From: Terana coerulea
Taxonomy: Eukaryota > Basidiomycota > Agaricomycetes > Polyporales > Phanerochaetaceae
Assembly (NCBI GenBank): GCA_024811115.1
Contig: JAKOGH010000709.1
Span: forward strand, 1-64,000
Length of the DNA: 64,000 bases
Reading direction: 5' to 3'
In this document: piece by piece, positions 8,268 to 42,410 of the stretch
How positions within the stretch are numbered: position 1 is the stretch's first letter
Layout of the letters: each line of letters opens with the position of its first letter
Notes under the pieces: model-generated
What the model saw: only the letters and a program-made list of their open reading frames with translations
What the model was told of the DNA's origin: nothing
Databases searched by the model: none
Program-made: the position numbers and the translations under genes

Positions 8268-9304
8268 CACTGCGGAACCCAAGAGATAAATCCTGGGGAT
8301 TTATTGTGTCAACACGTGGGAGTCTGAAACAAAATGGCCAGCATAAGTCACGCGGATTGATTAAATATTCTATTTCAGAAGATATACAACTTAAATGAAT
8401 GCATAAATCTGTGCACCTAACTCTGTATCCTTCTCCAATAACTCACAGAGCTTTAATCTGAGAATAAATCCCTTATATCTTTTGTAGCTTTTCTGTGGAT
8501 TTATAATGGGCACATTACTTGTAGGCAACAAGAGAAATTGACTAGATAAATAAAAACAAGTCACACATGTATTTGGCATGAACTAAGTAGAGGTCTTCAG
8601 AATACATCCACAGGATTTATTATGGCAATATATTCCATCCAATGCAGTGAGAGATATCAAGGACACGCCGTTGACATAAGTAAAATAAAGAACACAGATA
8701 TATTTATCATAAATCACGTACTACATATCTCCAGGATAAATCCAGCAGGACCTCGGATGCTTAGAAACATAGATGTCTGCTGAATGTATATTTTCCACAG
8801 ACATCTTTGTTTCTAAGTGTCTGAGGTCCTGCTGGATTTATCCTGGAGATATGTGGTATGTGATTTATGATAAATATATCTGTGTTCTTTATCTTACTTA
8901 TTTCAACTATATGTTCTCAATATCTCTCACTGCGTTAGGTGGAATATATTGCCACAATAAATGCCACGGACGTATTCTGAAGACCTCCACCTAGTTCATG
9001 CTGGATACATGTGTGACTTGTTTTTTATTTATCTAGTCAATTTATCTTGTTGCCTACAAGTAATGTGCCCATTATAAATCCACAGAAAAGCTACAAGAGA
9101 TACAAGGGATTTATTGTCAGAATAAAGCTCTGTGAGTTATCAGAGAAGGATATAGAGTTAGTCAGGTAGATTTACGTGTTCATTTAAGGGATATATCTAA
9201 AAAGGAATATCTAATTAATGCGCGTGACTTATGCTGGCCATTTGTTTCAGACTCCCACGTGTTTACACATACATCTCCGGGATTTATTTCTTAGGTTCGC
9301 AGTG
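8268..9304. mobile_element. Palindromic foldback element with CACTG ends and 3-bp duplication
   Basis: The whole 1,037-bp unit is one long inverted repeat. The left arm (8268 to about 8785) and the right arm (about 8800 to 9304) match in reverse complement over almost their full length, with scattered substitutions and small gaps. The ends read CACTGCGGAACCCAAGAGAT and, from the other side, CACTGCGAACCTAAGAAATA. The trinucleotide TTG flanks both ends (8265-8267 and 9305-9307). CACTG/CACTA termini with 3-bp duplications are the mark of the CACTA (EnSpm) transposon superfamily, so I infer a non-autonomous foldback member. It is AT-rich, with repeated ATAAATCC words, and has no credible coding frame. 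Confidence 0.8.
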
Positions 9305-15380: not shown

Positions 15381-15880
15381 TCAATTGTATAGCCTTGAAC
15401 CGAGATGTTCGATGAACTGATTGGTGTTGGGTCGGAATGCAACAGGGGGAATTCGAATAGTTAAAGAACGAGGGGCGCCTGGTACGCCCTTATAGAAGGC
15501 ATTGATGAGATCCTGGCAGTGGGTAAGGTTGGATTGGGGTTCCCATGTGTACTTGCGTGGACTGATTTCATGCTTCCATAAAACCTTGTATTTGAGAATT
15601 CCTTTATCCAACTTGGCGTCTAGGATCTCTTGACCTCATGCTCTTCTTGTCCATCGATTAGATCGGGTACTTCGGGTTCACGTGCCTGGGATTCAAAGAA
15701 GGGTTCTTGGAATGGTGAGAGCCACATCTCATTGACTGTGGGATAGATCTTTCTCCACACTTTAGGGAGTTCGAGCTGGTAAGTGGAGGCGCTGTGTTTT
15801 TGTTTAACTTTGAACGGGCTGTAGCGCTTGTTGTCAAGCTTCTTCATTGGTCGATCTGTGGTGATATTGGTCCCTTCCAA
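15381..15880 (-). pseudogene. Integrase C-terminal region and chromodomain (element 1)
   Basis: Two minus-strand frames make up this part. The one at 15620-15880 has the chromovirus integrase C-terminal signature (LDNKRYSPFKV, then STYQLELPKVW). The one at 15381-15611 continues with a chromodomain (YKVLWKHE...YTWEPQSNLTHCQDLI). Chromodomains bind methylated histone tails and steer integration to heterochromatin. The frame changes between the two segments, so they could not be translated together as they stand. Confidence 0.85.
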
Positions 15881-24765: not shown

Positions 24766-26649
24766 CAGTGCATAGAGGTCAGTCAGTATCTTAAGTAGCA
24801 CACTAGCCGCATATAATGTGGAGATGTAACACTGATGTACACTTGTAGCTGGTGCTAGGCCAGGCTTTTGTGGGAGGCCACTCTGCCATGTAGCTGCCAC
24901 GGCTGCCTTCTGTGCCGGCGTTAGCAGCTGGTAGCTTCGGCACACTTTCACTCGCTGCTGGAGGTTTGGCTGCAGACGTCACCAGTGCTGCATAGGCGAG
25001 TGCAAGTACTAGCACCGGCGTACTGCCCACCACCTTTATTCTGCACGCTAACACACTACACTGCCACCACATCGACATCAAACCTCTATCAAACTATTTT
25101 ATAGCGGCTCCATCCTTCGGTAGTGCTAATACATTTTATAGCGACTGTTTGGCAAGTGACATCAACGATTTGATCAACATCATTGCCGATCAGCAGCGCG
25201 CCCTCATGATCAACTATGTAAACAGTTTTGTCGCGCGACTACCACAGGACACCAAAACTTGTCAGCGAGTGTATCATCAATGTGAAAGAAAGCGTGAGCC
25301 TCATAAGGGCTCAGCTGCACAACATTTAGAATCCAGTTAGCTTAACAGCTGCCCTATGTACCCGGCAGAATGCCTTGCCAAAGCTTACGGCTGCTTCCTG
25401 GTGCTCCATCACTGCCCTATGCGGAAGTTAATGTTAAAACTGAGCTCGCTACAAGCTATGCTAACTTGTTCTGCAGATATTACAGCTGCAGTTGCAGGCT
25501 TTGTCATTGCCAACTATTCTATCAGCGGTGGTGGCGGCGTTGTGTTCTTCAGCAGTCTTCTTACCATTATCGCTCTCTGCCTACAGTGCCCAAATCTTGC
25601 TGTTCCCCGATGCTAGAGCTAATACCGGACACCCTGACAATGGCACAGCACTCAGTGAGTTAACAACAATCGTCAGCAGGTTCATACCTCTATCTGCGCC
25701 CGTTTACCATGATGGAGGCTTATTAGAACATCTGCCTGTATTTTTGACCTCTCTGCGTTGGCACTACATGCCAGCTATGGGCCCTATGTAGACGTACCTG
25801 TGTGCTAATCGGCATAACACTTTGCATCTCACCAATTAGAGGCAGACATTTTAAAGTACACATGTTTGTGGTTGCGTGGCCTAGGTAGATAGTGATATGC
25901 AATACCACATGTGTGGCCTGCCATCAGCCCTCTTTGCAGGAACAATGAGGAAACATCAACATACTAGAAGACCAGGTGCGATAACCCTTGCAGCACCAGT
26001 GCGCAAGCTCCCGGTTCCCAAATATGGATGGTCTCATGCATGCGTTGCTTCACCTCCGGGCACACCTGCACATAGCAAAATTCACAATAACCCACATATA
26101 TGTCATTCTACCATGGATACCAAGAAATTTTATTACAATTTTACACATGCAGGTACAGTATCACTACATTTAAGTGCTAGTTGAAGCCACATGGCCCACT
26201 GCTGTCTGCACTCAACCCTGCTCATACCAATTCAAACTGATGGCAATCGAAGCCGATTTTGCAACTTACTAGGCCACATTCGCATGGCAAGAACACGGAT
26301 TTGGTTACTGACGCCCCCACGCATGATGATGTTCACCAGCGCATTTGTGACATAGTTGGCAGGCAGCAGCTCCCAGAAAGAATAATAGTCTGCCGGACCG
26401 TCTGCTGGGGTCAATCACGACTGGCAGTAGCAGCTTACCCGTATCCGCACTGTCCATGACAGTCATCTCAAATATATCCATCTTCATTTCCTTCCACTGA
26501 GTTTGCCTCCACTCTTCATCCTAGTCCACTAGGCTTCGCAAGCAATGTCCATTCCAAAAGCCTTCCTCTACACATCTGTCCTAGTACTTCAACAGAAATG
26601 GCAAATCAAAGACCCTCTTGACCTCAACCCTCTTGACCATGTCCTGCTG
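24766..26649. other. No recognisable gene; short decayed coding-like stretches
   Basis: Short open stretches occur, for example near 25155-25250 on the plus strand (SDINDLINIIADQQRALMIN) and 26305-26487 on the minus strand. They are interrupted within 60-100 codons and match no family I know. No transposon ends were found, and the stretch is bounded on the right by large TIR repeat copy A. Confidence 0.4.
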
Positions 26650-27532
26650 CATCTGAAAAAACCCTTCCTTCTAATCTGTGCTTTATACTTCTTTTTTAGT
26701 GCTAAGTTGTCCATCATGCTCTTTTTCACTTTTTGTGAAAATGCTTTTAAAATACAGCTCATTTAGCTAATTTACCTCTATTAGCTTGCTAGACAGTTTT
26801 TGCCTTTTTAACATTCTAACCTGCTACTTGTTAATGGCTTTTTACTACCTAACTGACTTTTCATCACTTACCAATGCCTTATTATATTCTTTCATTAGCT
26901 CATTTACTAAATTTCTTTTTGCCTAATTTCTCACTATTTCATATTTTATCAATAGCTTATCATTATCTTCTTACTTACTTGCTTGTTATTTGTGCTATAT
27001 TTATGACATTACTTAGAGCTTATAATACTTATTTTGCTATTGCTTTTATTTATTATTTAAACCCTTATTATGATATTGTTTTCAGCTAATTTAGTTCTTT
27101 CCCTCCCTTTTTGTTTGCTAATCAGCTAATGCATATACTTATACTATTACACTTTTAGAGTTAATACAGGTACAGTTCCTTATTTTAGCCTAGTTAGCAT
27201 ATAAATGCATATTGAATTTCTTATTAGTCTAGTTTTTAAAGTGCACAAAGCCTTAAAGATGTTATCAATAATAAGTCTGGAGTTTTTCAATATTACCTTT
27301 ATAACCCAGTATAAAAGCTCTATATAACTGCCAAAAAGGAGCTGCTTATGTTTGGATTGTCTATTTTTATATATATAATAGCCACAATTGAACAACATGT
27401 TGTAATCACTTTTAAATATTATAACAGCCCTAAAAGAGTGACTGCTTTATAAATGATTAAGACCATCCATTATGTATGTTTTTGTTGACGGGTTAGGCTA
27501 AAAAGGACAATGATAAAATATCAATACAATGC

Positions 27533-27604
27533 ACATACAAGGACTCGAACCCAGGACCACCTTGATTAACACACCCAAAAGTTAACAACTGCACCATAGC
27601 AGCT
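27533..27604 (-). other. tRNA-like segment inside repeat copy A
   Basis: On the minus strand an A-box-like TATGGTGCAGTTGTT and a B box GGTTCGAGTCC are spaced as in a tRNA gene. The acceptor ends do not pair. The same segment exists in copy B (40828-40900), so it belongs to the repeat family and could serve as an internal Pol III promoter. Confidence 0.6.
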
Positions 27605-27984
27605 TAGCTGTATACTTGCATGCATTATTGATGACTGACAAGGCCTGTTGAAATGCCTCAACATCTCTGAGGCCTTCGCATTTAGCACCACCTTCATCCC
27701 CTCAGTTTCCTATTCTTAACCGACGCGTCAGCTGCATCGCAATCATTTACTACGCCCACTAGGACCCAAGCGACACTACAACGACAACAGAGGGTCAGGT
27801 GATGGATAGAGCAAGGCCATGAAGGGGAGGGGCTTCTCTGCAAACAAGGTACGTGGCCGTCTTGCCGTATTCACCACTACTACCTAGAACCGTCCACGGC
27901 CGTGCATGCACGGCTTATGGACAGTGGTTTTGTAAGTAGGCACCACAGCCCCTTGGAGTAACGAACAACGCGTGCGAAGCGCCC

Positions 27985-28960
27985 CATGTAGTCAAGCACA
28001 ACTCAACATGCCCAACGCCAGCAGGTGAGTGTGACGCCAACACACAAGAAGCCAGTATGCATGACACAACGCGTATAATAGAAATGGCTGCACAACAACG
28101 CACGCATGGTGGCGACGGACGCGTACAACGCCAACGCCAGTGCATGGGGCATGGCAAAGCATGGCACGTGTAGGCTGATGTAGGTAAGCACACCACTGTT
28201 ACAAAGAGCCGACACATGACCCAAGGACCAGGGCAGCAGGATATACAGATGCGACACTGAAGAATGCAGCGCGCGCACCATGCCGATGCTGGCGCGCGGG
28301 ACGTAGCAAAAGCATGACACGCGCAAACCAATGCAGGCAAGCGCGACACCAATGCACAAGAGGCCAGAGCGCGTACAGTACAATGCGCATGATATGCAAG
28401 GCAGGACAACAGCGCACACACATACAGTGCCGATAGATGCGCACCACGCCAACGCCGGCACGCAAGACATGGCAAAGCACGGCATGCGCAGACCGATGCA
28501 CGAGAAGCCGGGCGCACATGGCACGAAGGGTGTGGTAACGATGTATGCACAGCGGCAGCAGATGCACACAATGCCAACGCCCGGTGGGCAGGACGTGGTG
28601 AAGTCTGACGCGCGGGTTAGCGCGACACCAATGCCCAGGAAGCTGGCACACACAACACGAAGGGTGTGGCAACGACATACGTCGCATGCACAGTGTCAAT
28701 AGATATGCATCACACCAACGCCGGTGTGCGAGATGTGGCGAAGCACAGCACGTGCAGGCCAATGCAGGCAAGCATGCCACCAATACAAAGGGCCAGCGCA
28801 TGACGCTGAAAACCAGGGCAGCAATGTGCATGAGTGCAATGCCAACAAATGCAGCATGCACACTACGCCAGCACCAGTGCGTGGAACATAGTGAAGCACA
28901 ACGCGCACAGACTGACGCTGATAAGTGCACCCCCATCAGAAAGGGCTGTTGCATGACACG
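27985..28960. repeat. Minisatellite-like block in copy A
   Basis: Six or seven diverged units begin with versions of CCAACGCCGGCGCGCAGGAC followed by GTGGCGAAGCACG (starts near 28116, 28279, 28444, 28570, 28712 and 28866). Spacing is about 125-165 bp. Long frames of up to 251 codons, rich in Cys, Ala, His and Arg, are by-products of the repeats and not genes. Confidence 0.75.
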
Positions 28961-29409
28961 AGGGGCAGGGTAGCAGTTTATGTAATTATATTACTGACAA
29001 ATACAACACATAGGCAAGTACAGTACCTGGTGTGCAGGTTTGTCTGCACAGTATGAGTAGTTTGGTATGTTAGGTAGTTTAGTTTTGTGTGTAGATAACT
29101 AGACATAGAATATAATGTATTAGTCCAGATTAGCAGGGGGATTTCTCAGATGACTAGTCAAGCAGTAGTGATATTATAGCTGCATGTAAGGAACAAAATA
29201 GAACAGTAAGACACAGAATAGCAGAGAAGTAGTGCTAATTGCCCTAATATATAGAATAATTAAGACAATTAGCAAAGGACCTCACTAAACTGCCTTATTG
29301 GCCTTATGCATCTATTTATCTAGTTGTGTTACTTTGATGCTTATATGCAAAGAATTAGTGCTTATCAGTAGGCATTAGGTAGAAATAGTAGGGGTTTTTT
29401 TTCCAGATG

Positions 29410-29584
29410 TGTGAGCCTTCGCATGCTGACCAACTGGCAATTGCCACTGGTGGAGCAGCAAGCTGAGCAACCACTTTGCAGGGGATACTTAGCACCTTCT
29501 GCACAGCGTTGTGAGAGGCTGACCCAGTGACTGTTGTATTCAATGGAGGCGACCGCTGTAACCCTACCTCGCATGAGACTGAAG
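29410..29584. other. Spacer between repeat copy A and the plus-strand chromovirus
   Basis: About 175 bp without ORF or repeat. It separates the right TIR of copy A from the 5' LTR of the next retrotransposon. Confidence 0.5.
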
Positions 29585-30101
29585 TGTCATAAATTTCCCT
29601 CAGCGCTATTCCACAGCGCTTAGAGTGTAACATCAAGTCACAGGACACGTCACCAAGCTGTCACATAGCGTTACAAGATGCTAGATCAGTTTGCCATGTG
29701 CTTGTCGCATGGACATCAGGGATATGCCTTATACGGACATAGGATCCTGGACTTTGGTCTGGAACTGTTCTGGACTATGACATCATGGACTGATAGTGTA
29801 CAGTAGCTCAATTAGGACATCTAGATAGTGTTGATGTTAGCATGATAGCTAGGTCAGATCTGATAAGGGAGTTAGAGCGGTGGTATGCTTTGGAGCCTTA
29901 GTCAGACATCACCTAACTATATCAGTCAGCATATGGTATTGAAGGTCTTAGATAGTGTCTGGGGTCCCTCTATACATATATATAAGGAGGCTGGTCTGTG
30001 GTCTAAAACCCTAGACTCAATAACATTGTTGATTCATATCTACTCTACTAGCTCTACTCAAGTCCCTCTGCTTTCTCCACCTCTTTCAAGTCATCCCAGC
30101 A
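29585..30101 (+). repeat. 5' LTR of the plus-strand chromovirus
   Basis: It pairs with 37263-37800 at about 90% or more by eye. A TATA-rich word (TATACATATATATAAGG) near 29970 is a likely promoter TATA for the element. The right LTR has an additional insertion of about 20 bp (a TCAGTATGA repeat near 37463) and other small gaps. Confidence 0.9.
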
Positions 30102-30778
30102 GGTGAGTATTGTAGTTTTGTGATAGTTTGTTGAGTCTGCTTTGCTGCTTGTTGTTGCTGTTAAGGGCAATAAGCAAGACCTTTGTTGCAGTGTTATGCG
30201 GCATACATATTGTTATGCATAGTGTGTCAAAATGAACACTGTTGCTACATGGGTTCTGGGGGATCTTGCCAATGTTCTGCAAAGAACTAAGGCTATGAGC
30301 TAGTCGCCGTCAGGGACTATGCTCTGTATCGTTGAAAAGCACCATGGCTTAGGCTGTGGGCTGCCATTATAGCAGCATGCTAATCTTCATGCCGATCCTC
30401 AGGCGTAAAGAGGTGCTCGCTGCGCTGTATAGCGTAGAGCAACATTCTGATGTGACTTACCTTTGGGTAGTTACGGCTATGAGCCTTCGGGTGTTGACAG
30501 CAAACCAGTTTGGGGCGAGCATAGAGTCAATGTAATATTGGCTCGAAAACCTTTGCTGCACGGCTGGAACCCTGTCAGAGACCCTCATACCGCTCTTGAT
30601 TGAGTTGGTACCTCCAGACCTGGTGAGAGAAACCAGGCCGTTGTCGACACTACCGATTGTATGCATTAAGACCGCACGACCTCAACAGGTCATTCTGTTC
30701 GTTCACCATTTTCTGTACCGTGTTTGCTGAAATAGAGACCAGTACTGATGCCGTTGTTATGCAGCCATGCTGAAAGTA

Positions 30779-31500
30779 CTCCCTGCGTTCACTACCTATG
30801 CAAAGAACGAGCCTTTGGGCCTTCACAAGTGCATCTCTCCTTCAAAGGAGATCTGAGCCAAATACACCAACATTTGCAAGCCTCAAAAGGTCTACAACTC
30901 CAACATCTCTAAGCCGCACTCTTATCCTCTCACTTCTGAGGAGAGTAAGCAGCTTACGGAGGAGGCTCAGGCCAATGCGTTACTCAAGCGCATTGGGTCT
31001 TACACCCTGTTCAAGCAGCGTTGAAAAGAGCTGCTCAACCGCCTCTCCAACCCTTTGCCACCACTCATCGAACGACTCGCACCTCGCGAGAGTATCAGGT
31101 CCCTAAGCCGCCCCCAGCTAAGCTTCACTTTTGTCGAATGAAGCTACTCAAGCATTCTAACGAACTCCAGCTGATGCTCGAGGGCAACGAAAGTTCGCCT
31201 CGACCTGGTCTTTGAGAAACTCTACGAGAGGACTCACTGCAGGACACTAGTCACACTGAAAGGGTGCAGGTGCCTGAGGAAATTCGGAACAAGCTCTGGG
31301 GCTGGTACGACAAGTTTCAGAACGTCTATGAGAATCTGGACTCGGTGGGGCAGAAGTTGGATAATAAACAGTGGAGAGAGTTGACAGGCACATTGAAGCG
31401 TATTGGAAAGGTTTCATTTACGAACTTGAATGGTAGATTCACAGAGATTTGTAGTCAACTAGCAGCACTTGATGTAATAATCCCCAAGACTGCTAATTAA
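30779..31500 (+). pseudogene. Extra reading frame upstream of gag in chromovirus 2, unassigned
   Basis: Between the 5' LTR and gag the plus strand shows a decayed frame from about 30779 to 31130 (words such as KVYNSNISKPHSYPLTSEES and ANALLKRIGSYTLFKQR). It is interrupted by two TGA codons that look like former CGA. A second open stretch follows at 31264-31500 (VPEEIRNKLWGWYDKF, SVGQKLDNKQWRELTG). I recognise no domain. It might be a leader protein, an N-terminal part of Gag, or a captured host gene. Confidence 0.4.
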
Positions 31501-31606
31501 ACTCTGCATTTACTACTCGGAATAACTGGCTGGCATGCAACAACCGACTCGACCTTTTGTGTTCGAAGTTTAATTAAAAATTGGCACTAATATGAAGAGC
31601 AGAAAT

Positions 31607-32933
31607 GTCTTCTTTCACTAACTTTGTCCCTAACCACACTACAGAGGTCATTGCCGACCCTGTAGCAGCCCTCCTGCACAATGTCGACACTAACTTTGCT
31701 CGCTTCAGTGATGCACAGTTGGCAGTGATTCTCCACATAGCGCAGAATGCTTTTTCTCAGTCTGTTTGAATCAGCGCGGACTTTGCGCAAGGACATGTCA
31801 CTGACATGTCAGGCCACTTCAACTATGCGCATGACGCAACATACGAAGCAACTGATGACCAGCAGCACTGAATTGAGGAGCTGGAGAATATAGCTCTCGA
31901 GCAAGCCTCAAAGATTCGGTCTCTGGAAAAGCTTGTGAAAGCTTACAAGTCTATTGTTGAGGCCTACAAGGCCCAAGTTGACAAAATTCCTGCAGATGGA
32001 GGCAGTGGTGGGTGCGTCCCAAAGATGCCCAATCCTCCCACCTTCGATGGCGCGAAGAATAGCCTCGAAGAGTGGTTGAACCACATCACCTTGTACTGCG
32101 AGCATATGCAGATTGCAACAGACAAGCAACACATTGTCTTGTCCTCAGTCATCTGCGCGGCACTGCCGCAACTTACATGAAGTCCTATGCAAACAAGTTG
32201 CGAACAACCAGCCTATTGGCACATGGCTCGAATTTGTCAAGGAGATGCAGGGTATATACGAGCAGCGCAATGAGAAACAAGGTGCCAAGGAGGAACTCGA
32301 TAACCTCTGGAATAACAAGGATCTGGCCTGAAAGACTTTGTCCAATACGCAGAGAACTACAAAACTCTGGCCCAGACCGTGGAGTACCAGGACAAGCTGC
32401 GCATCAACAAGATTAAAGGAGTGCTTCCTCAGGATACACGCCAGACAATGGTCGTCCTGTCTCTTAGTGGCGCTGAGCCCAAGAAATGGGAAGCCTACCT
32501 TGATACTCTGTTGCAGCTATACAAGGAGCTCCAGTAAGAACGGTCGAAAAGTGCGGTGTTTGGCAACAACGGCACTAGCAAGAATATGGCGGAGGCAAAC
32601 GAGCAGTCAAAGGGTAAAGGCAAGGGCAAGGCGAAGGAAACCAACCAGGCAGAAACGTCCGGCAAACGCAAGTTCTGCCAAATCTGCTCTGGTAAGGGTA
32701 AAAGCTTGCGCGCCAAAACCCACAACACAAATGACTGCTACGACAATTTGAAGAATGCTAACTCTGGCAAAGGTACTTTGTTGTCATCCCCGTTATCCTC
32801 TAGCAACAACAACGGCAACAGGAACCAAAGCAGCAATGCTTCTGGTTTTGGTGGAAACTCTGGTTCCAAAGTCGAAGGGCAAGCCATCCTTCAGGAACCC
32901 TCTCATGGAGCTTTTGAGCTCTATGTCCGATGA
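31607..32933 (+). pseudogene. Gag remnant (element 2)
   Basis: The frame starts ATG at 31607 (MSSFTNFVPNHTTEV). It contains a coiled-coil-like part (IEELENIALEQASKI), the capsid region (PPTFDGAKNSLEEWLNHITL, then LRGTAATYMKSYANK) and a basic Ser/Asn/Gly-rich tail. The tail has one Cys/His cluster (CQICSGKGKSLRAKTHNTND) that is longer than a standard CCHC knuckle. TGA stops interrupt near 31768 and 31869, and there is a frame change near 32150 and another near 32330. It is therefore not translatable as one protein. Confidence 0.82.
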
Positions 32934-33169
32934 TGACGATAATGCTTCTCTCAGCAACATTGAAGTCAACTCAGCGAGCATCCATGAGCCGAGCAAATCT
33001 GAGCTTGCCAAAATGGAAGCAACCGAGCGCAGTAATGAACCTTGGTTAGGCCCAGGCAGATGTCCATAGGTTAATCACAGGACTCAGATGGATTTTCCCA
33101 GGGAATGTAGAGGCTAATGTCTGCAATCTACATTCGGAATGATACACCCCTTGTCGGCTCCAAGTAGAT

Positions 33170-34810
33170 TTGGACAGAGTAGTACTGGAATCTTGTATAA
33201 CTAGCATAGCTCGCAACAAGAAACATTCTTTTAGACTTCCAGTAATGCTTTGGGTGTATGGTTTTAAAGTGCAGGCCGAGGCTTTAGTGGACTCAGGTGC
33301 TACAATGAACTTCATTAATAAATCATTCGTTGAAAGAAATCATCTGGTAACTAATTGTATGGCAAAGTCTACGTGGGTCAACGTAACTAACGCAAATGGA
33401 ACTCCAAACCAAGCAGGACAAATTTGTGATTATGTCCGAGCTTATATTCAAATCGGTGGTCATAAGTCTACTTGCATACTGTATGTTACACAGTTAGACG
33501 ACAAAAACATGATGATTGGTTACAATTTCTTGTACCGACACAACTCCGAGATTGACTGGGAAAAAGGGGAATTGGAGTTTACCAGATGTCCTGAGAGCTG
33601 CATTACCAATCAAGCCCGTAAAATACGAGTCAGTGAAGCTGAAACTGACAAGCTTCAACTCGAGTCGGATCTTCCGTGGGAATCCTCCCTGGACGAATTT
33701 GGAGATGAGGATACAGATAATCCATTTATCAACTGGGTGAACATTGATGTCCTCAACGATTGCACACAAGCAGAAGTTATCGCGGCCATGTTTGACGAAA
33801 AGGGCGTGGACGAGGTCCTGGAGGACTCCGATAATGAAGACACTGTCAAGTGGAAGTCACACGTACCTGAATGGCTACATGAGTATGGCGACGTGTTCTC
33901 CAAGCACAAGTCAGAGCGCATGCCGGTACGCAAGATATACGATCATCCGATTGACTTTGTGGAAGGAGCCTCCCTTCCCAAGCCGGCTAAACTATACCTG
34001 CTGTCTTCCAAAGAGAAGAACTCTTTAGATGAATGGATCGATGAAGAAAAACGGAAAGGTTACATTCGACCTTCCAAGTCTCCAGTTGCAGCACCATTTT
34101 TCTTTGTCAAAAGCACGACAGTGGATTACGTCCGTGTATGGACTACCGCGCACTCAACGAGATTACTGTGAAGAACCGCTACCCAATCCCAAAGATTGCT
34201 GACCTGATTGACTCACTGTCTTAAGCATCTATCTTTACAAAGATTGACCTCTGGTGGGGCTATAATAACGTTCGAATTCATGAGGGGGATGAATGGAAAA
34301 TGGCATTTATCACAAAACGCGGTCTATTTGAGGCAACCGTCATGTATTTCGGATTTTCCAATGCACCAGCCACATTCCAAGCCATGATGAACAACATCCT
34401 GGGTGACTTGATTCGACAAGGACAAGTCATGGTGTATTTGGATGATATCTTGATTTTTGGCAATGATTTGAAAGAACATCGCATGCTTGTCAAAAAGTGC
34501 TGAAAGGCTTTGTGGCAACGATCTCTACGCAAAAGCGGAGAAGTGCTTCTTTGGGAAGGACCGGATTGAATATCTTGGCATGATTATCTCAAAGGGCAGC
34601 ATTGCGATAGACCCTGCAAAGGTGTCAGGAGTTCTTGAGTGGCCAGTATCAACTAAAGTCAAATATGTACAGGCTTTCTTAGGCTTTGCGAACTTCTATC
34701 GCAGGTTCATACAGGACTTTGCCAAGCTAGCCAGACCACTCACAGATCTAACAAAAAGGATCAACCTTGGGTTTGGGAAGCTGACCAACAAGTGGCATTT
34801 GAGGCGCTGA
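33170..34810 (+). pseudogene. Protease and reverse transcriptase (element 2), frame-broken
   Basis: The protease loop is ALVDSGATMNFINKSF at about 33280. The linker (HEYGDVFSKHKSERMP) and first RT blocks ([16 protein letters not shown]) follow in the same frame up to about 34110. After a frame change the RT continues as [20 protein letters not shown], a stop, FTKIDLWWGYNNVRI and FGFSNAPATFQAMMNN. It keeps the catalytic box VYLDDILIF near 34435. A further frame change near 34500 leads to the thumb and connection (AKAEKCFFGKDRIEYLG, LGFANFYRRFI). The catalytic motif is intact here, unlike in element 1. Confidence 0.9.
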
Positions 34811-35257
34811 AAAAGGCCTTCACTGCAGCACCCATACTACGTATTCCAGATGATGTAAACCCATTCAGACTATCGACCGATGCAAGTGACTTTGCAATTG
34901 GTGCAGTGCTGTCGCAACGGGATCCTGCTGATGAAATGTGGCACTCTGTTGCCTTCCACTCTAAGTCTCTCAACGTACACGAACGTAACTACGAGATTTA
35001 TGACAAAGAGTTGCCTGCTATTTCACGAGCTCTGGAAGAGTACAGACACTATTTGGAGGGACACCCGGGAAAAGTTCGAGATCTGGTCAGATCATCAAAA
35101 TCTGACTTATTTCCAAACAGCCCAAAAGTTGACATGGAGACAAGCGCGATGGGCTTTGTACCTAACGCAATTTAACTATTCTCTACATCACAAGCCTGAA
35201 AAACAATGCAAGCTAAAGACCCTTTGTCCAGGAGGCCAGATCATGAGGAAGGGGTAA
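34792..35257 (+). pseudogene. RNase H domain (element 2)
   Basis: The typical words are [38 protein letters not shown] and, after a frame change near 35070, [13 protein letters not shown]. The Asp of TDAS and the Glu of KEL are active-site positions and are present. It lies directly between the RT connection and the integrase. Confidence 0.87.
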
Positions 35258-35260
35258 AGC

Positions 35261-36243
35261 TTGACAACCGAGACCAAATTTTGCTCAAACCGGAATATTT
35301 CGCCATTCAGGGCTGTTGAGGCTTCCCATAGGGCGCCTGTTCATGACGACCAAATCCTAAGTGAGGTCAAAGAAGCATTGCTATCAGATGATGTTACAAA
35401 GGGCTATAAGTCATTATTGAAGTCAGGACCTAGAGAGTTTGGTAAAAGCCTCAAGGAATGGAACTATAAGAATGGATTACTACTATTTCGTGGCAAGATA
35501 TACATCCCACAGTCAACAGATGATCATCTACAATGACGAATTGTACAAATCCATCATGATTTACCATCAGCTGGACACCCTGGCAGGTGGAAAACATACG
35601 AATTAGTCTTTAGAAACTATTGGTGGCCGGGCATTTCAATATTTGTGAAAAACTATGTGACAGGCTGCAACATGTGCCAGCCGGATGAAAAATCGCCCAC
35701 AGCAGCCCTATGGACCTTTGATGCCAAACTCCTGTGCCTCATGGGCCATGGGAAATTATATCAATCGACCTTATTACTCAGTTACCAGAGTCAGAAGGAT
35801 ACAACACTATTTGTGTTGTCGTATGTCGACTTATCAAGCGAGCGCACTTCTACGCAATCAACAATGAGTTCTCGGCAAGAGACTTGTTGCAACTACTATA
35901 TGACAAAGTCTATCCCTTGCATAGGCTGCCACTTCAGATCATATCAGATTGAGGAACTCAGTTTGCAGCAGAACTATTCCAGCAATGGTGCAAACTACTT
36001 GGTATTGAGTCGGCTATGTCTACGGCATATCATCCACAGACAGACGGACAAACAGAGCGTGTAAACCAGATTCTGGAACAGTATCTTCGGTGCTATGTGG
36101 ACTATAATCTTGATAATTGGTCTGCATTGTTGAGTACAGCAGAATTTGCGTACAACAACAGAGCATATGAGGGAACCAAGGAGACTCCATTCTTCTTGGA
36201 ATATGGTCAACATCTACAAGCGGGTCCCACATTAGTCAAATAG
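35261..36243 (+). pseudogene. Integrase zinc-binding and catalytic core (element 2)
   Basis: The HHCC module spans about 35540-35680 (HHDLPSAGHPG, YWWPGISIF, CNMCQPD). The core follows with the three acidic residues still visible: Asp in IISIDLITQLP, Asp in LPLQIISD, and Glu in TAYHPQTDGQTERVNQ. A TGA directly after IISD sits where family members have Arg, consistent with a CGA to TGA change. The core ends at a stop near 36241. Confidence 0.87.
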
Positions 36244-36367
36244 GTCAAGAGCATAGACTTTAACGACATCATGAAACAGCGATACGAAGCCCAAGAGCAG
36301 GCGAAAGCTGCTCTAACCTTAGCTGCTGAGCGTATGAAGTAGTACTACAACCAGGGGCGTCCAGAAC

Positions 36368-37219
36368 GTGCTGTTTAAAGTCGGAGACAAAGTACTTATC
36401 AACTTACGGGATTACCAGACTACAGAGCATGCATTAAACCCACAGTATGAGGGACCATTCAAGATAATTGAACAGTTGTCTGCTGTCACCTTCAAGGTTA
36501 AAATGCCACCACGCTACCGTGCTATGCACCTAGTATTCCACGCCAGCAAGCTAGCCACTTACAACGAACCTTCCATACCAGGCCAGAAGCCCTTAGTACC
36601 TAAGCCAGTCATAGTTAAAGGACAGAAAGAATGGGAAGTTGAGAAGATCTTATAACACCGCCAACGCGGTAAGAAAACTCAATATCTGGTTCAATGGAAG
36701 GGTTATGAACGCGATGAAGTCACCTGGGAAAATGAGGACAATGTCAAGAATGCTAAGCAAGCTGTTCAAGACTACCTCAGACAAAACCGACAAGCTGCAC
36801 GAGCAGTTGAGTTCGAAGAGGATGTTACTCTGACGCTATTGCAGCGGGACTCTATACTTCAAGTCGAACTTATTGGTGGTCAAACCCCTACTCGCATCTC
36901 CAAAGGAGCAGCCAGACTTACGCTGCATGCCTATCACAACTACACAGTTAAATCCAACTCGCAGACAATAGTGCCTATCGGCATTAAAATCCAGCTGCCG
37001 AGTGGAACTTGTGGCTGTATTATGTTGTGCAACTGACTTTCTAACGAAAGAGTTGAAGCAGTTACCAAAGTGATCGACTGTGACTACAAAGACGAGATAC
37101 AAGTAACCCTTGTAAACAATAGTGACTTCGACTTTGTAGTTAAAAATGGCGATCAGGTGGCTCAGCTCATTATCGAATGGATTGCAGATGTTGACATTGA
37201 AGTAGTTAGTCTACGGTAA
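36368..37219 (+). pseudogene. Integrase tail, chromodomain and dUTPase-like domain (element 2)
   Basis: One frame runs through this region, broken only by TAA near 36653 and TGA at 37034-37036. The integrase tail (FKVGDKVLINLRDYQT, YEGPFKIIEQLS) is followed at 36683 by a chromodomain (YLVQWKGYERDEVTWENEDN). From about 36840 comes a dUTPase-like domain. I see PTRISKGAARLTLHA at motif 1, IVPIGIKIQLPSGTCG before motif 2, VIDCDYKDEIQVTL at motif 3 and GDQVAQLIIE at motif 4. The frame stops at 37217-37219, just before the purine tract. Motif 2 (normally PRSG) has been lost around the TGA, so this copy is unlikely to be active. dUTPase removes dUTP and limits uracil in DNA. Confidence 0.82.
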
Positions 37220-37262
37220 ATTGGCAAATTCTCGACGGAGCTCGAACCTGAGGAGGGGGTAA

Positions 37263-37800
37263 TGTCATAAATTTCCCTCAGCGCTAGTCTACAGCGCTTA
37301 GAGTATAGCATCAAGTCACAGAACATGTCACCAAGTCGTCACACAGTGTTACAAGATGTTAGATCAGTTTGCCATGTGCTTGTCAGCATGGACATCAGGG
37401 ATATGCCTTATACAGACGTAGGATCCAGGACTCTGGTTTGGAACTGTTCTGGACTATGACCTCAGTATGATGTCAGTATGACATCATGGACTGGTAGCGT
37501 ACTGTAGCTCAATTAGGACATCTAGATAGTGTTGATGTTAGCATGATAGCTAGGTCAGATCTGATAAGGGAGTTAGAGCAGTGGTATGCTTTGGAGCCTT
37601 AGTCAGACATCACCTGACTGTATCAGTCAGCATATGGTATTGGAGGTCTTAGATAGTGTCTGGGGTCCCTCTATACATGTATGTAAGAAGCTGGTCTGTG
37701 GGCTAAACCCCCAGACTCAACAACATTGTTGATTTATATCTACTCTACTAGCTCTACTCAAGTCCCTCTACTTTCCCACTTCTCTCAAGTCATCCCAGCA
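37263..37800 (+). repeat. 3' LTR of the plus-strand chromovirus
   Basis: It begins TGTCATAAATTTCCCTCAGC just after the purine tract and ends at or shortly after TCATCCCAGCA. It mirrors 29585-30101 with substitutions that are mostly transitions. Confidence 0.9.
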
Positions 37801-38349
37801 GGTGAGTATTATAGTTTTGTGATATCAGTACATGCTCTCCACGTCGGACACGTGACTAACTGGCTGTATCATTCTTCTTGCAGCTTGGAGGTCCACCCCA
37901 TTAGTATAATCTGCTAGAAGCTGGCATTCCGGACCTGGGCCCTTGTCTCCACGTCTTACATACCTTTTTTGGCTACACAATTTTTCTTTCAATATCTTCT
38001 CATTATGTGACTCAACCTTCAGTGTTTTGGAACCAGCTCTGACCATGACATAACAGAAATGGCGACTTTGGTGCCTATATTCTTATGGCATCTTTTACAA
38101 CTATACTTAGTGCTAATCATACCTACTAGTACTTACATCTCGGACTGCACTGTACATCAGCCTGTGGGATCTCCGCTCTTATGGATATGGTTCAACACTG
38201 CTGGCAATGTGAACACTATTGTAAGTGAAACTTGTCTCGTGCAAGGTCAAAGAGATTAGTGTGCAATAGAGTTTAGTTATTGGCATGGAAAGGATCTGTG
38301 ATGATATACTTGCACCAAGACATGGTCCAAGAGTGAGGATCTCACAAGT
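37801..38349. other. No recognisable gene after chromovirus 2
   Basis: This is low-coding DNA between the 3' LTR and the DUF6533-like fragment. About 24 bp at its start still match the sequence after the 5' LTR. Confidence 0.4.
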
Positions 38350-38545
38350 TAGAACAGAAGAACGCTCATGAGTGCAACTCGTACAAAACTTACTCACAAT
38401 CTGTGCAGTTGTGATCCTAATAATCATAGTCTCTGCAATCATGTGGAGTGCAATCATCTGGAGGGCAAGCAGGGTGAAAAGAATGGTAAAAAGTGTCCTG
38501 TTGTATGGTGGCCAACACAGTGGAATGGCACATAGTACTAGATGC
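38350..38545 (-). pseudogene. Duplicated fragment of a DUF6533 gene (exon plus intron part)
   Basis: On the minus strand this matches 62690-62850, part of the DUF6533 gene at 62448-63765, at roughly 85% by eye. Both have TLFTILFTLLALQ-like coding followed by IAETxxIxITTAxI, and the match continues into the intron (GTAAGTTTTGTACGAGTTGC here). Because intron sequence is included, the copy was made from DNA and not from mRNA. A 15-bp tandem duplication (ATGATTGCACTCCAC) lies within the exon part. Several CG sites of the other copy are TG or CA here. Confidence 0.75.
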
Positions 38546-38659
38546 ATCAGGTTATAGCCTCCAGAAATCCTCCTGGCTTGCTGCAAAACCAGGTAGCATG
38601 CAACTGACCTTTTCCCTAATAAGAACATTGATGAGATTGATCTAGAAAAGGTTAAGAGC

Positions 38660-39831: not shown

Positions 39832-39940
39832 ATTTATGGCAGCCCTTTTGCACATTTAATAGACGCTGTAACAAATTGACACCCAGCTGTAAACAATCAT
39901 AACAAACCGTAAGTAATCGACCGTAACTATCTTCCAACTC
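39832..39940 (+). repeat. Left part of inverted repeat arm 1, split by repeat copy B
   Basis: It matches in reverse complement the outer part of 44195-44385, with shared words such as TTTGCACATTTAATAGACGC-like and CATAACAAACCGTAAGTAA. Copy B of the large TIR repeat interrupts it at 39940/39941, and the match resumes at 42411. Confidence 0.7.
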
Positions 39941-40827
39941 CATCTGGAAAAACCCCTCTTTCTAATCTGTGCTTTATGCTTCTTATTTAACACTAAATTG
40001 TTTATTATGCTCTTTTTCGCTTTTTGTGAAAATGTATTCTTAAAATATAGTTTATTTAGCTAATCTACATCTATTAGCTTGCTAAACAGCCCATTGCCTT
40101 TTCAACATTCTAATCTGCTGATTATTAATGGCTTTTTACTACCTAATTGACTTTTTATCCCTTACCAATGCCTTATTGCATTCTTTCATTAGCTCATTTA
40201 CTATATTTCTTTTTATCTAATTTCTCACTATTGCATATTTTATCAGTAGCTTATTATTAGCTTTTTACTTATTTGCTTGTTATTTGTATCATATTTATGA
40301 CATTATCTAGAGCTTATGACACTTATTTTGCTATTGCTTTTATTTATTACTTAGACTCTTATTATTGTATTGCTTAAAGCTAATTTAGTTCTATGTCCTC
40401 CTTTTCTGCCAATCAGCTAATCTATATACTTATACTATTACACTTTTAGAGTTAATGTAGCTACTATTCTCTATTTCAGCCTAGTTGGCACATAAATGCA
40501 TAATGGATTCCTTATTAGACTGGTTTTCAAAGTGCACAAAGCTTTAAGGATATTGTTAATGACAAGTCTGAAGCTCTTTAATATTACCTTTATAACCTAA
40601 TATATAAGCTCTGTACAATTGCTAAAAAGAGCTGCTTTTGCCTAGAATGTCTATATTCTTATATAATTGCCATTTGCCACAGTTGAACAACAAGTTGCAA
40701 TCAATTTTAAATATCACAATAGCTCTAAAAGAGTGACTGCTTCACAGACGACCAAAGCAATTCACACTGTATGCTTTTGTTAATGGGCCGAGGCTCAAAA
40801 AAGATGATCAGAAATAACCACAATGCA

Positions 40828-40900
40828 CCCGGAAGGACTTGAACCCAGGACCACCTGGGTAAACGCGCCCAGTAGATTAACAACTGCGCCATAGCGGCTT
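40828..40900 (-). other. tRNA-like segment inside repeat copy B
   Basis: On the minus strand it has GCCGCTATGGCGCAGTTGTT (A box) and GGTTCAAGTCC (B box). CTGGG and CCCAG could form an anticodon-like stem, but the loop is 8 nt and the acceptor ends do not pair, so it is not a standard tRNA. Confidence 0.6.
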
Positions 40901-41289
40901 GAGTGTATTATCGTACCGAATGGTCATAACTTACTGGGTATATTGAAGCGCCTTAACCCTTCGCGTTTGGTTGGCGTCATCTTTCATTCCCTCGGTCCCT
41001 CATTCCTAACCGACGCGTTAGCTGCGTCGCGACCACCTACCGCGACACCAGGACCCAAGCGACACCACACAAGAGTGGGGGACGCGTGAATTATCGAGCA
41101 AGACTGTTGAAGGGGAGGGGCTCCCCTGCAAACGAGGTACGTGGCCCTCTCGCCGCATCCACCGCTGCCCAGAGCCGTCCATGGCCGTGCATGCACGGCT
41201 TATGGACGGTGCTTTCATGAATAGGCACCACGCATCCCCCACCAGCAACGAACACCGCGCGCGAACGCCCGCGTAGTCAAGCACGACGC

Positions 41290-41940
41290 AACAAGCTCAA
41301 CGCCGGCGGCCGCGACACAGACGCACAAGAAGCCGGCGCGCACGACACGACGCGTACGACACGAAGGGCGGCGCACAACGCCGACGCCGGCGCGCGGGAC
41401 GTGGTGAAGCACAGCACACGCAGGCCGACGTAGGCGAGCGCGCCGCCGTTACAAAGGGCCGACGTACGACGCGAGGGACCAGCGCAACAAGCTACACAGG
41501 CGCGACGCCGAGAACGCAGCACGCGCATAACACCAACACCGGCGCGCGGGACGTGGCGAAGCACGACGCGCGCAGACCGACGCAGGTGAGCGCGACGCCG
41601 ACGCACAAGAAACCGGCGCGTACAGCACGACGCGCAAGATACGCAGGGCGGGACAGCGGCGCACGCACGTACGGTGCCGACGGATGCGCACCACGCCAAC
41701 GCCGGCGCGCAGGACGTGGCGAAGCACGACGCGCGCAGGCCGACGCAGGCGAGCGTGCCGCCGTTACAAAGGGCCGACGCACGACGCGAGGGACCAGGGT
41801 AGCAAGCTACCCCAGCACGACGCCAACGAGCGCAGCACGCGCACCGCGCCGGCGCTGGCACGCAGGACGTGGCGAAGCACGACGCGTGCAGACCGACGCT
41901 GACAAGTGCGCCCCCGTCAGAAGGGGCTGGTGCACGACAT
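41290..41940. repeat. GC-rich minisatellite-like block in copy B
   Basis: Four to five units start near 41376, 41536, 41697 and 41850, each about 155-160 bp. Each carries GGACGTGGCGAAGCACGACG, followed by alternating subunit types (CCGTTACAAAGGGCCGACG, or CGACGCACAAGAAACCGGCG). CpG is very frequent. The 257-codon minus-strand frame here is a by-product of the repeats. Confidence 0.78.
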
Positions 41941-42410
41941 GAGGGCCAGGGTAGTGGTGTACGTAAGTATGTTACTGACAGATACAACACACAGGTGGGC
42001 ATGGCGCAGTGCAGGTGAGTATGGTGCATGGTGCATGGGCTTACCTGCACAGTACAAGTAGTTTGTTGTGTTAGGTAGCTTAGTCTTGTATGTAGATAAC
42101 TAAATATGCAATACAGAGCATCAGGTTAAATTAAGAAGGGGATTTCTCAGATGATTAGTCAAGCAGTAGTGGTATTATAGCTGCATGTAAGGAACAAAAT
42201 AGGACAGTAAGGAAACAAATAGCTGAGAAATAGGACTAATTGCCCTAATATATAGAATAATTAAGACAATTAGCAAAGGACCTCACTAAACTGCCTTATT
42301 GGCCTAATGCATCTATTTATCTAGTTGTGTTACTTTGAAGCTTATGTGCAATGAATTAGTGCTTATCAGCATGCATTAGGCAGGAATAGTAAGGGGGTTT
42401 TTCAGATGTC

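What the first reader, a model, noticed from the sequence alone, without database searches (positions are those of the whole stretch)
36368..37219. Chromovirus polyprotein ending in chromodomain followed by a dUTPase-like domain
A single frame runs from the integrase tail through a chromodomain into a domain with dUTPase motifs 1, 3 and 4, ending just before the purine tract. dUTPase is known in several retrovirus groups at other positions (pro or RT region). A C-terminal placement after a chromodomain is unusual to me, and I cannot check whether it has been described in fungal elements. It might limit uracil incorporation or help counter host DNA repair.
Basis: partly seen in the sequence, partly recalled or inferred. 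Interest (0 to 1): 0.75.

Follow-up and report, generated by a model that had tools for sequence, protein, structure and literature searches.

The report
Fungal retrotransposon with disarmed dUTPase tail
A decayed fungal retrotransposon carries, behind the chromatin-binding end of its integrase, a domain related to the DNA-protecting enzyme dUTPase but without key parts of the active site; a dUTPase at this position was already known, and keeping the domain after losing the active site is the less expected part.

Summary
The observation largely holds. Frame 36338-37219 (+) of a decayed Ty3/gypsy chromovirus reads integrase SH3 tail, chromodomain, dUTPase domain, but two in-frame stops interrupt it. 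PF00692 matches at 64.2 bits; 28 of 34 element-like dUTPase places in this genome have a chromodomain hit just upstream. The position is not new: a C-terminal Pol dUTPase was reported in 2010 for a Postia placenta element (PMC2864245, section 5 read), and 42 of 203 listed database relatives are such fusions. What stands out is the active site. In this family 0 of 33 readable copies have the motif 1 Asp, motif 2 is replaced and no motif 5 is seen, so uracil control by it is unlikely. In the groups without motif 1 Asp, identity to 25 intact rows is 0.32-0.49 in motifs 1-3 (intact rows 0.84) but 0.38-0.44 elsewhere (0.46). Net dN/dS between two subfamilies is 0.21, below simulated neutrality but overlapping the within-subfamily ratios. 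Best reading: a captured dUTPase kept as a non-catalytic module of the integrase tail. Neutral persistence is the main rival.

The parts
29585..30125 (+). 5' LTR
   Evidence: BLASTN match to 37263-37824, 89.4% over 564 columns; starts TGTCATAAATTT like the 3' LTR
33272..33535 (+). aspartic protease piece
   Evidence: PF13975, residues 44-131 of the piece 33143-34168
34228..34497 (+). reverse transcriptase piece
   Evidence: PF00078, 65.8 bits, residues 2-91 of the piece 34225-34500
35540..35680 (+). integrase zinc-binding (H2C2) domain
   Evidence: PF17921, 59.7 bits, residues 2-48 of the piece 35537-36061
36383..36562 (+). integrase C-terminal SH3 domain
   Evidence: PF24626, 47.1 bits, residues 16-75 of the piece 36338-36652
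36632..36781 (+). chromodomain, with one in-frame stop (36653-36655)
   Evidence: PF00385, 57.8 bits, 1 TAA inside; stop position
36884..37204 (+). dUTPase-like domain, with one in-frame stop (37034-37036) in motif 2; frame runs to the stop at 37217-37219
   Evidence: PF00692, 64.2 bits, profile 5-111 of 129, 1 TGA inside; pieces apart 21.7 and 36.8 bits; motif residues; stops
37250..37259 (+). purine run, likely polypurine tract
   Evidence: sequence, just before the 3' LTR
37263..37824 (+). 3' LTR
   Evidence: match to the 5' LTR; related copies elsewhere match about bases 1-561 of the query that starts at 37264

Best explanation
The feature is the C-terminal end of Pol of a decayed fungal chromovirus. 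A dUTPase lies behind the integrase chromodomain (shown: order and homology), as in other fungal elements, many of which keep all five catalytic motifs. In this family the active site was lost before its two subfamilies split (shown: neither subfamily has the motif 1 Asp, motif 2 Pro-Arg-Ser or a visible motif 5), while the rest of the domain stayed nearly as similar to intact dUTPases as these are to each other (shown). Most likely the domain was kept as a non-catalytic folded module of the integrase tail, for example a trimer-former or docking surface (inferred), and does not remove dUTP (inferred).
For: PF00692 and PF00385 in one frame; 28 of 34 element-like places with a chromodomain hit 98-304 bases upstream. 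Motif residues over 34 copies: motif 1 Asp 0 of 33 readable; motif 2 Pro 0, Arg 1, Ser 1 of 34; both motif 3 Gly replaced in 34 of 34; no motif 5 in the tails printed. Motif columns fell to 0.32-0.49 identity while other columns stayed at 0.38-0.44 in the groups without motif 1 Asp. Net dN/dS between subfamilies 0.21, bootstrap 0.13-0.35, against simulated neutral 0.50-0.95. P0010, from another source, is also degraded and joins the window family at 98/96; its model is well folded (mean pLDDT 91.3) and 49 of the 50 PDB rows printed name a dUTPase. Precedent: BIV's dUTPase relative has no detectable activity, yet its mutants gave no progeny (PMC4531489 passages).
Against: dN/dS inside the two subfamilies is 0.29 and 0.35 for this domain, overlapping the net value, so extra constraint is modest; the linker before it is more constrained (0.07). 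The neutral level rests on assumed mutation biases. Motif 3 Asp (30 of 34) and motif 4 Gln (34 of 34) are kept, so some ligand binding or weak activity is not excluded. The model of P0010 used an alignment with many intact dUTPases, which pulls it to that fold; the window's own domain was not folded. No structural role was tested.
Confidence: 0.55

Rival explanations
1. Neutral persistence: the captured dUTPase became dispensable, its active site decayed under relaxed selection, and the rest of the domain is only slow to disappear because a C-terminal tail does little harm.
For: Net dN/dS 0.21 overlaps the within-subfamily values 0.29 and 0.35 and exceeds the linker's 0.07. Loss of the motif 1 Asp goes with no visible motif 5 in 7 of 7 database rows, as if truncation or general relaxation were under way.
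Against: Motif columns changed far more than the rest, whereas general relaxation would also lower the rest. Net dN/dS lies under every simulated neutral value, 0.50-0.95. Degraded domains without internal stops occur in database proteins of three groups (P0010; P0007, P0012, P0024; P0014, P0017, P0123).
Confidence: 0.3
2. A working dUTPase, that keeps uracil out of the element's cDNA or counters host repair.
For: Motif 3 Asp is kept in 30 of 34 copies and motif 4 Gln in 34 of 34. 22 of the 38 related fusions that reach motif 4 have the key residues of all five motifs, so the wider group probably does contain active enzymes.
Against: In this family motif 1 Asp is absent in 33 of 33 readable copies, motif 2 is replaced, motif 5 is not seen. 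Deletion of the C-terminal glycine-rich motif abolished EIAV dUTPase activity, and the motif 3 Asp alone only places the water (PMC4531489 passages). Metal is held by residues of motifs I, II and IV (PMC12524310 passages).
Confidence: 0.1
3. Artefact of decay: the missing motifs reflect random mutation or assembly error in old copies, and the element that was active had a normal dUTPase.
For: The copies are damaged: 26 of the 33 copies other than the reference L011 have a frame-shifting gap in the 489-base stretch compared, and the window copy has two in-frame stops.
Against: The replacements are shared: motif 1 Thr in 28 of 33 readable copies, Cys and Asn in motif 2 in 32 of 34 each, Lys and Asp in motif 3 in 34 of 34, across both subfamilies. 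P0010, from another source, is degraded too.
Confidence: 0.04

Closest known systems
dUTPase-bearing chromodomain Gypsy elements of basidiomycetes, PosPlaTy3-4 of Postia placenta (PMC2864245, section 5 read)
   Same: dUTPase at the carboxyl end of Pol in a fungal Gypsy element
   Different: The text gives no state of the catalytic motifs; its sequence was not compared here. In the window family motifs 1 and 2 are lost and motif 5 is not seen.
Fusions in the protein database, e.g. P0124, P0125, P0132 (Phanerochaete sordida)
   Same: Integrase SH3, chromodomain, linker and dUTPase in the same order
   Different: These three have the key residues of all five motifs
P0010, P0007/P0012/P0024 and P0014/P0017/P0123 (metagenome sources)
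   Same: Same place, motif 1 Asp lost, no motif 5 seen (P0024 is a piece without a chromodomain on it)
   Different: P0010 alone joins the window family firmly (98/96); the other two groups have also lost the motif 3 Asp
BIV dUTPase relative (PMC4531489, passages)
   Same: Retroelement dUTPase relative without detectable activity, yet needed by the virus
   Different: About 74 residues, between RT and IN; here most of the domain length is kept and it lies behind the chromodomain
ERV3 dUTPase (PMC4299795, passages)
   Same: dUTPase downstream of integrase
   Different: Vertebrate retrovirus relatives; no chromodomain is mentioned in the passages seen

Membership tests
chromovirus (Ty3/gypsy, Metaviridae) | Chromodomain behind the integrase C-terminal domain | tested here: met
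   PF24626 then PF00385 in one frame
chromovirus (Ty3/gypsy, Metaviridae) | LTRs at both ends and order PR, RT, integrase | tested here: met
   LTR pair; PF13975, PF00078, PF17921 in this order; no RNase H or integrase core hit was obtained, pieces only
chromovirus (Ty3/gypsy, Metaviridae) | Place in a named fungal clade | not tested
   No reference RT set was compared
trimeric dUTPase (PF00692) | Sequence match to the family profile | tested here: met
   64.2 bits against a cut-off of 22
trimeric dUTPase (PF00692) | Motif 1 Asp | tested here: not met
   0 of 33 readable copies, 1 more with a gap
trimeric dUTPase (PF00692) | Motif 2 Pro-Arg-Ser | tested here: not met
   Pro 0, Arg 1, Ser 1 of 34
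trimeric dUTPase (PF00692) | Motif 3 Asp and motif 4 | tested here: met
   Asp 30 of 34; motif 4 Gln 34 of 34, Asp 22 of 34; but both motif 3 Gly replaced in 34 of 34
trimeric dUTPase (PF00692) | Motif 5, glycine-rich C-terminus | tested here: not met
   Not seen in the tails printed for 33 places and the window; L041 is cut by the contig end
trimeric dUTPase (PF00692) | dUTPase fold | tested here: inconclusive
   Met for the closest relative P0010, with an alignment rich in dUTPases; the window's own domain was not folded
trimeric dUTPase (PF00692) | Trimer and dUTP hydrolysis | not testable with these tools
   Needs protein
fungal chromoviruses with C-terminal dUTPase (PosPlaTy3-4 kind) | dUTPase at the carboxyl end of Pol in a chromodomain element | tested here: met
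   description in PMC2864245 section 5
fungal chromoviruses with C-terminal dUTPase (PosPlaTy3-4 kind) | Close kinship to PosPlaTy3-4 itself | not tested
   Its sequence was not at hand

The most novel reading that the evidence does not exclude
In several fungal chromovirus lineages the dUTPase behind the chromodomain has repeatedly lost catalysis while keeping its fold, because the element uses the trimeric fold itself as an oligomerisation or docking module of its integrase: a pseudo-enzyme tail that shapes the intasome or its chromatin targeting.
Probability: 0.3. Interest if true: 0.65.

Novelty: new variant of a known kind. Interest (0 to 1): 0.42.

Why it matters
It moves the question from why a retrotransposon carries a dUTPase to why it keeps the domain after losing the enzyme. 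BIV shows that an inactive dUTPase relative can be needed by a retrovirus (PMC4531489 passages). Fungal chromoviruses offer natural five-motif and degraded versions of the same fusion, so catalytic and structural roles could be told apart by experiment.

Tried and rejected
Viral contigs searched with the L011 piece gave 4 pattern matches and no relative by tblastn. Rfam and tRNA scans of the window gave nothing. The repeat finder over 30500-38600 found no repeat of 40 or more, because the 5' LTR lies further upstream. A protein search with one 163-aa piece found one relative; alignment queries found 1036 and 5649, of which at most 120 each are listed.

A single origin of the motif 1 loss was tested: not rejected on the dUTPase tree without motif 1-3 columns (2 changes over 77 rows, p-AU 0.40); rejected on the SH3-chromodomain tree (4 changes over 28 rows, p-AU 0.030). 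The group was named after motifs and trees had been seen, so this p is soft, and the second tree assumes that dUTPase and chromodomain travelled together. In it P0029 and P0031 were put with the dUTPase-bearing rows because they run into the linker or first dUTPase residues, though no dUTPase is listed for them. Rows labelled as without dUTPase may be cut pieces, so the 14 label changes there were not interpreted. 3 of 82 aligned rows were dropped from the dUTPase tree as too short. The number of captures is left open: the non-element dUTPases change label 6 times, 2 forced by starred branches. The 25 intact rows (16 fusions, 5 pieces, 4 other dUTPases) and the 17 pieces were chosen by me. Dating was left at LTR K2P 0.069, as no rate for this host is known. 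The host was not identified; all three protein searches went to the domain. A whole-text search for dUTPase, Polyporales and retrotransposon found nothing.

Full report
WHAT IS THERE. From 36338 to 37219 on the + strand one frame carries an integrase SH3 tail (PF24626, 47.1 bits), a chromodomain (PF00385, 57.8 bits over 36632-36781) and a dUTPase domain (PF00692, 64.2 bits, E 3.5e-16 over 36884-37204). Two stops interrupt it, at 36653-36655 and 37034-37036. Searched as separate pieces the two halves of the dUTPase domain score 21.7 and 36.8 bits. Upstream lie pieces of a protease, a reverse transcriptase and an integrase H2C2 domain. LTRs lie at 29585-30125 and 37263-37824, 89.4% identical over 564 columns by BLASTN, K2P 0.069 over 539 ungapped sites. 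The frame ends 43 bases before the 3' LTR, with a ten-base purine run between. It is a decayed Ty3/gypsy chromovirus copy.

THE FAMILY IN THIS GENOME. PF00692 gave 38 rows in the whole genome. Three rows on contig C629 look like exons of the host's own gene (motifs 2 to 5 readable) and two rows on C419 are one element, so 34 element-like places remain, the window included. 29 of 38 rows, that is 28 of 34 places, have a chromodomain hit upstream on the same strand with a gap of 98 to 304 bases. The other six were not checked for a broken chromodomain. The 3' LTR and following bases matched in 43 rows, the window's own included; only 40 of 310 candidates were scored.

THE ACTIVE SITE. 34 copies were laid on the frame of L011, a copy with an unbroken dUTPase frame, and residues counted. 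Place of the motif 1 Asp: Thr 28, Met 4, Ala 1, gap 1, Asp 0. Motif 2 Pro-Arg-Ser: Pro 0, Arg 1, Ser 1 of 34; Cys 32 and Asn 32 stand for Arg and Ser. Motif 3: Asp 30, Tyr 32, but both Gly are Lys and Asp in 34 of 34. Motif 4: Gln 34, Asp 22. None of the tails printed shows motif 5; one, L041, is cut by the contig end. The database piece P0054 shares the stretch FSTELEPEEGVMS with the bases after the stop in copies of this family and still has motif 5, which suggests that motif 5 was lost in the window lineage. Shared replacements point to a common ancestor without these residues rather than decay copy by copy.

RELATIVES. Three protein searches gave 1, 1036 and 5649 hits, at most 120 listed each: 203 different proteins in all. 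By their listed Pfam domains 41 have dUTPase with chromodomain, and P0002 dUTPase with SH3: 42 fusions. Named ones are from Hermanssonia centrifuga (P0001, P0002), Volvariella volvacea (P0008, P0028) and Phanerochaete sordida (P0132); most others have no host name. 38 of 42 reach motif 4: 22 have the key residues of all five motifs; 6 have those of motifs 1-4 but not the tested Gly of motif 5 (P0005 among them keeps most of motif 5); 6 have lost the motif 1 Asp; 4 have a change in motif 2 or 3, two of these also without motif 5. The 6 without motif 1 Asp all show no motif 5, though P0010 and others may be cut at a contig end. Of 17 further dUTPase pieces that I chose for their linker or likeness, 12 have all five, 1 has lost motif 1 Asp (P0024), 1 is cut before motif 4, 3 are others.

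IS THE LOSS SPECIFIC. Against 25 intact rows of my choice, identity in the 23 columns of motifs 1-3 is 0.49 for three window-family copies, 0.32 for P0010, 0.35 for P0007/P0012/P0024 and 0.39 for P0014/P0017/P0123; intact rows among themselves have 0.84. In the other 84 columns it is 0.39, 0.42, 0.44 and 0.38 against 0.46. In the 7 motif 4 columns it is 0.56, 0.79, 0.75 and 0.61 against 0.86. Hermanssonia rows (0.71; other columns 0.41) and P0129 (0.76; 0.36) lie between. The motifs went from most conserved to average while the rest stayed. This is the main evidence that the domain outlived its active site.

HOW OFTEN. On the dUTPase tree without motif 1-3 columns (79 rows, 97 columns, few for so many rows), the window family joins P0010 (98/96*), P0014/P0017/P0123 join P0037, which has the key residues of all five motifs (97/84*), and P0007/P0012/P0024 lie near the window family without firm support (89/75). 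That tree needs 2 changes for the motif 1 Asp and does not reject one clade (p-AU 0.40). The SH3-chromodomain tree (62 rows) needs 4 and rejects one clade (p-AU 0.030). I read this as probably more than one loss, not as shown.

SELECTION. The 34 copies fall into groups of 20 and 14. Net dN/dS between groups is 0.21 for the dUTPase-like domain (5-95% of codon bootstraps 0.13-0.35) and 0.07 for the chromodomain tail and linker. Neutral simulations with rising transition and CpG bias gave 0.95 down to 0.50. Against this, dN/dS inside the groups is 0.29 and 0.35 for the domain, overlapping the net value, so extra constraint is modest.

STRUCTURE. P0010, modelled with 49 other rows, has mean pLDDT 91.3. 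Of the 50 PDB rows printed 49 name a dUTPase; the other is a phage-island repressor entry (6h4c). The first row has TM 0.85 by target length and rmsd 1.4. The alignment holds many intact dUTPases, which pulls the model to that fold.

WHAT IS KNOWN. PMC2864245 (outline, passages, section 5) reports dUTPase at the amino end of Pol, at its carboxyl end (PosPlaTy3-4) or between PR and RT in Postia placenta elements, cites earlier finds in Phanerochaete and Tuber (not read), and thinks the domain was acquired independently. PMC5408684 (passages) says that retroviral dUTPase can lie after IN, and PMC4299795 (passages) that ERV3 has it downstream of integrase. PMC4531489 (passages) says that deleting the P-loop-like C-terminal motif abolished EIAV dUTPase activity, and that the BIV protein shows no activity while its mutants made no progeny. 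PMC12524310 (passages) assigns metal contacts to motifs I, II and IV. Passages of PMC2774666, PMC11105155 and PMC3248453 were also seen. In the listings of eight searches I saw no title or abstract start on a catalytically degraded C-terminal dUTPase of fungal chromoviruses; the library lacks most subscription papers and listings were capped.

MECHANISM. Shown: order, homology, family-wide loss of active-site residues, retention of the other columns. Inferred: no dUTP hydrolysis in this family; a structural role on the integrase tail, such as trimer formation or docking. The intact relatives may work as dUTPases tied to integrase. Neutral persistence remains a serious rival. The names and roles of motifs 1 to 5 are general knowledge except where a paper is cited.

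Noticed in passing
window 15489-15629 (-): A second chromodomain hit (PF00385, 37.4 bits) in the same window, probably another retroelement.
   Followed up: no
window 37825-38070: After the 3' LTR, ATGACA (an inverse of the LTR's TGTCAT) and a stretch that resembles a primer-binding site; copies elsewhere do not match this part. It may belong to another element.
   Followed up: no
window 8268-9304: The stretch matches its own reverse complement at 86.4% over 1044 columns, a long inverted repeat.
   Followed up: no
window 26647-28500 with 39938-41747; 28683-29410 with 41664-42409: Direct repeats of 76.3% and 78.8% identity on either side of the element.
   Followed up: no
L037 (G000:C629:151226-153074): The host's own dUTPase gene, apparently in exons, with motifs 2 to 5 readable.
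   Followed up: partly
L009-L042, element copies: Many single-base gaps in copies that are otherwise 93-97% identical to L011; decay or assembly error cannot be told apart.
   Followed up: no
proteins P0038, P0045, P0092, P0087: Other dUTPase placements by their listed Pfam domains: with an aspartic protease (first three) and with integrase H2C2 (P0087).
   Followed up: no
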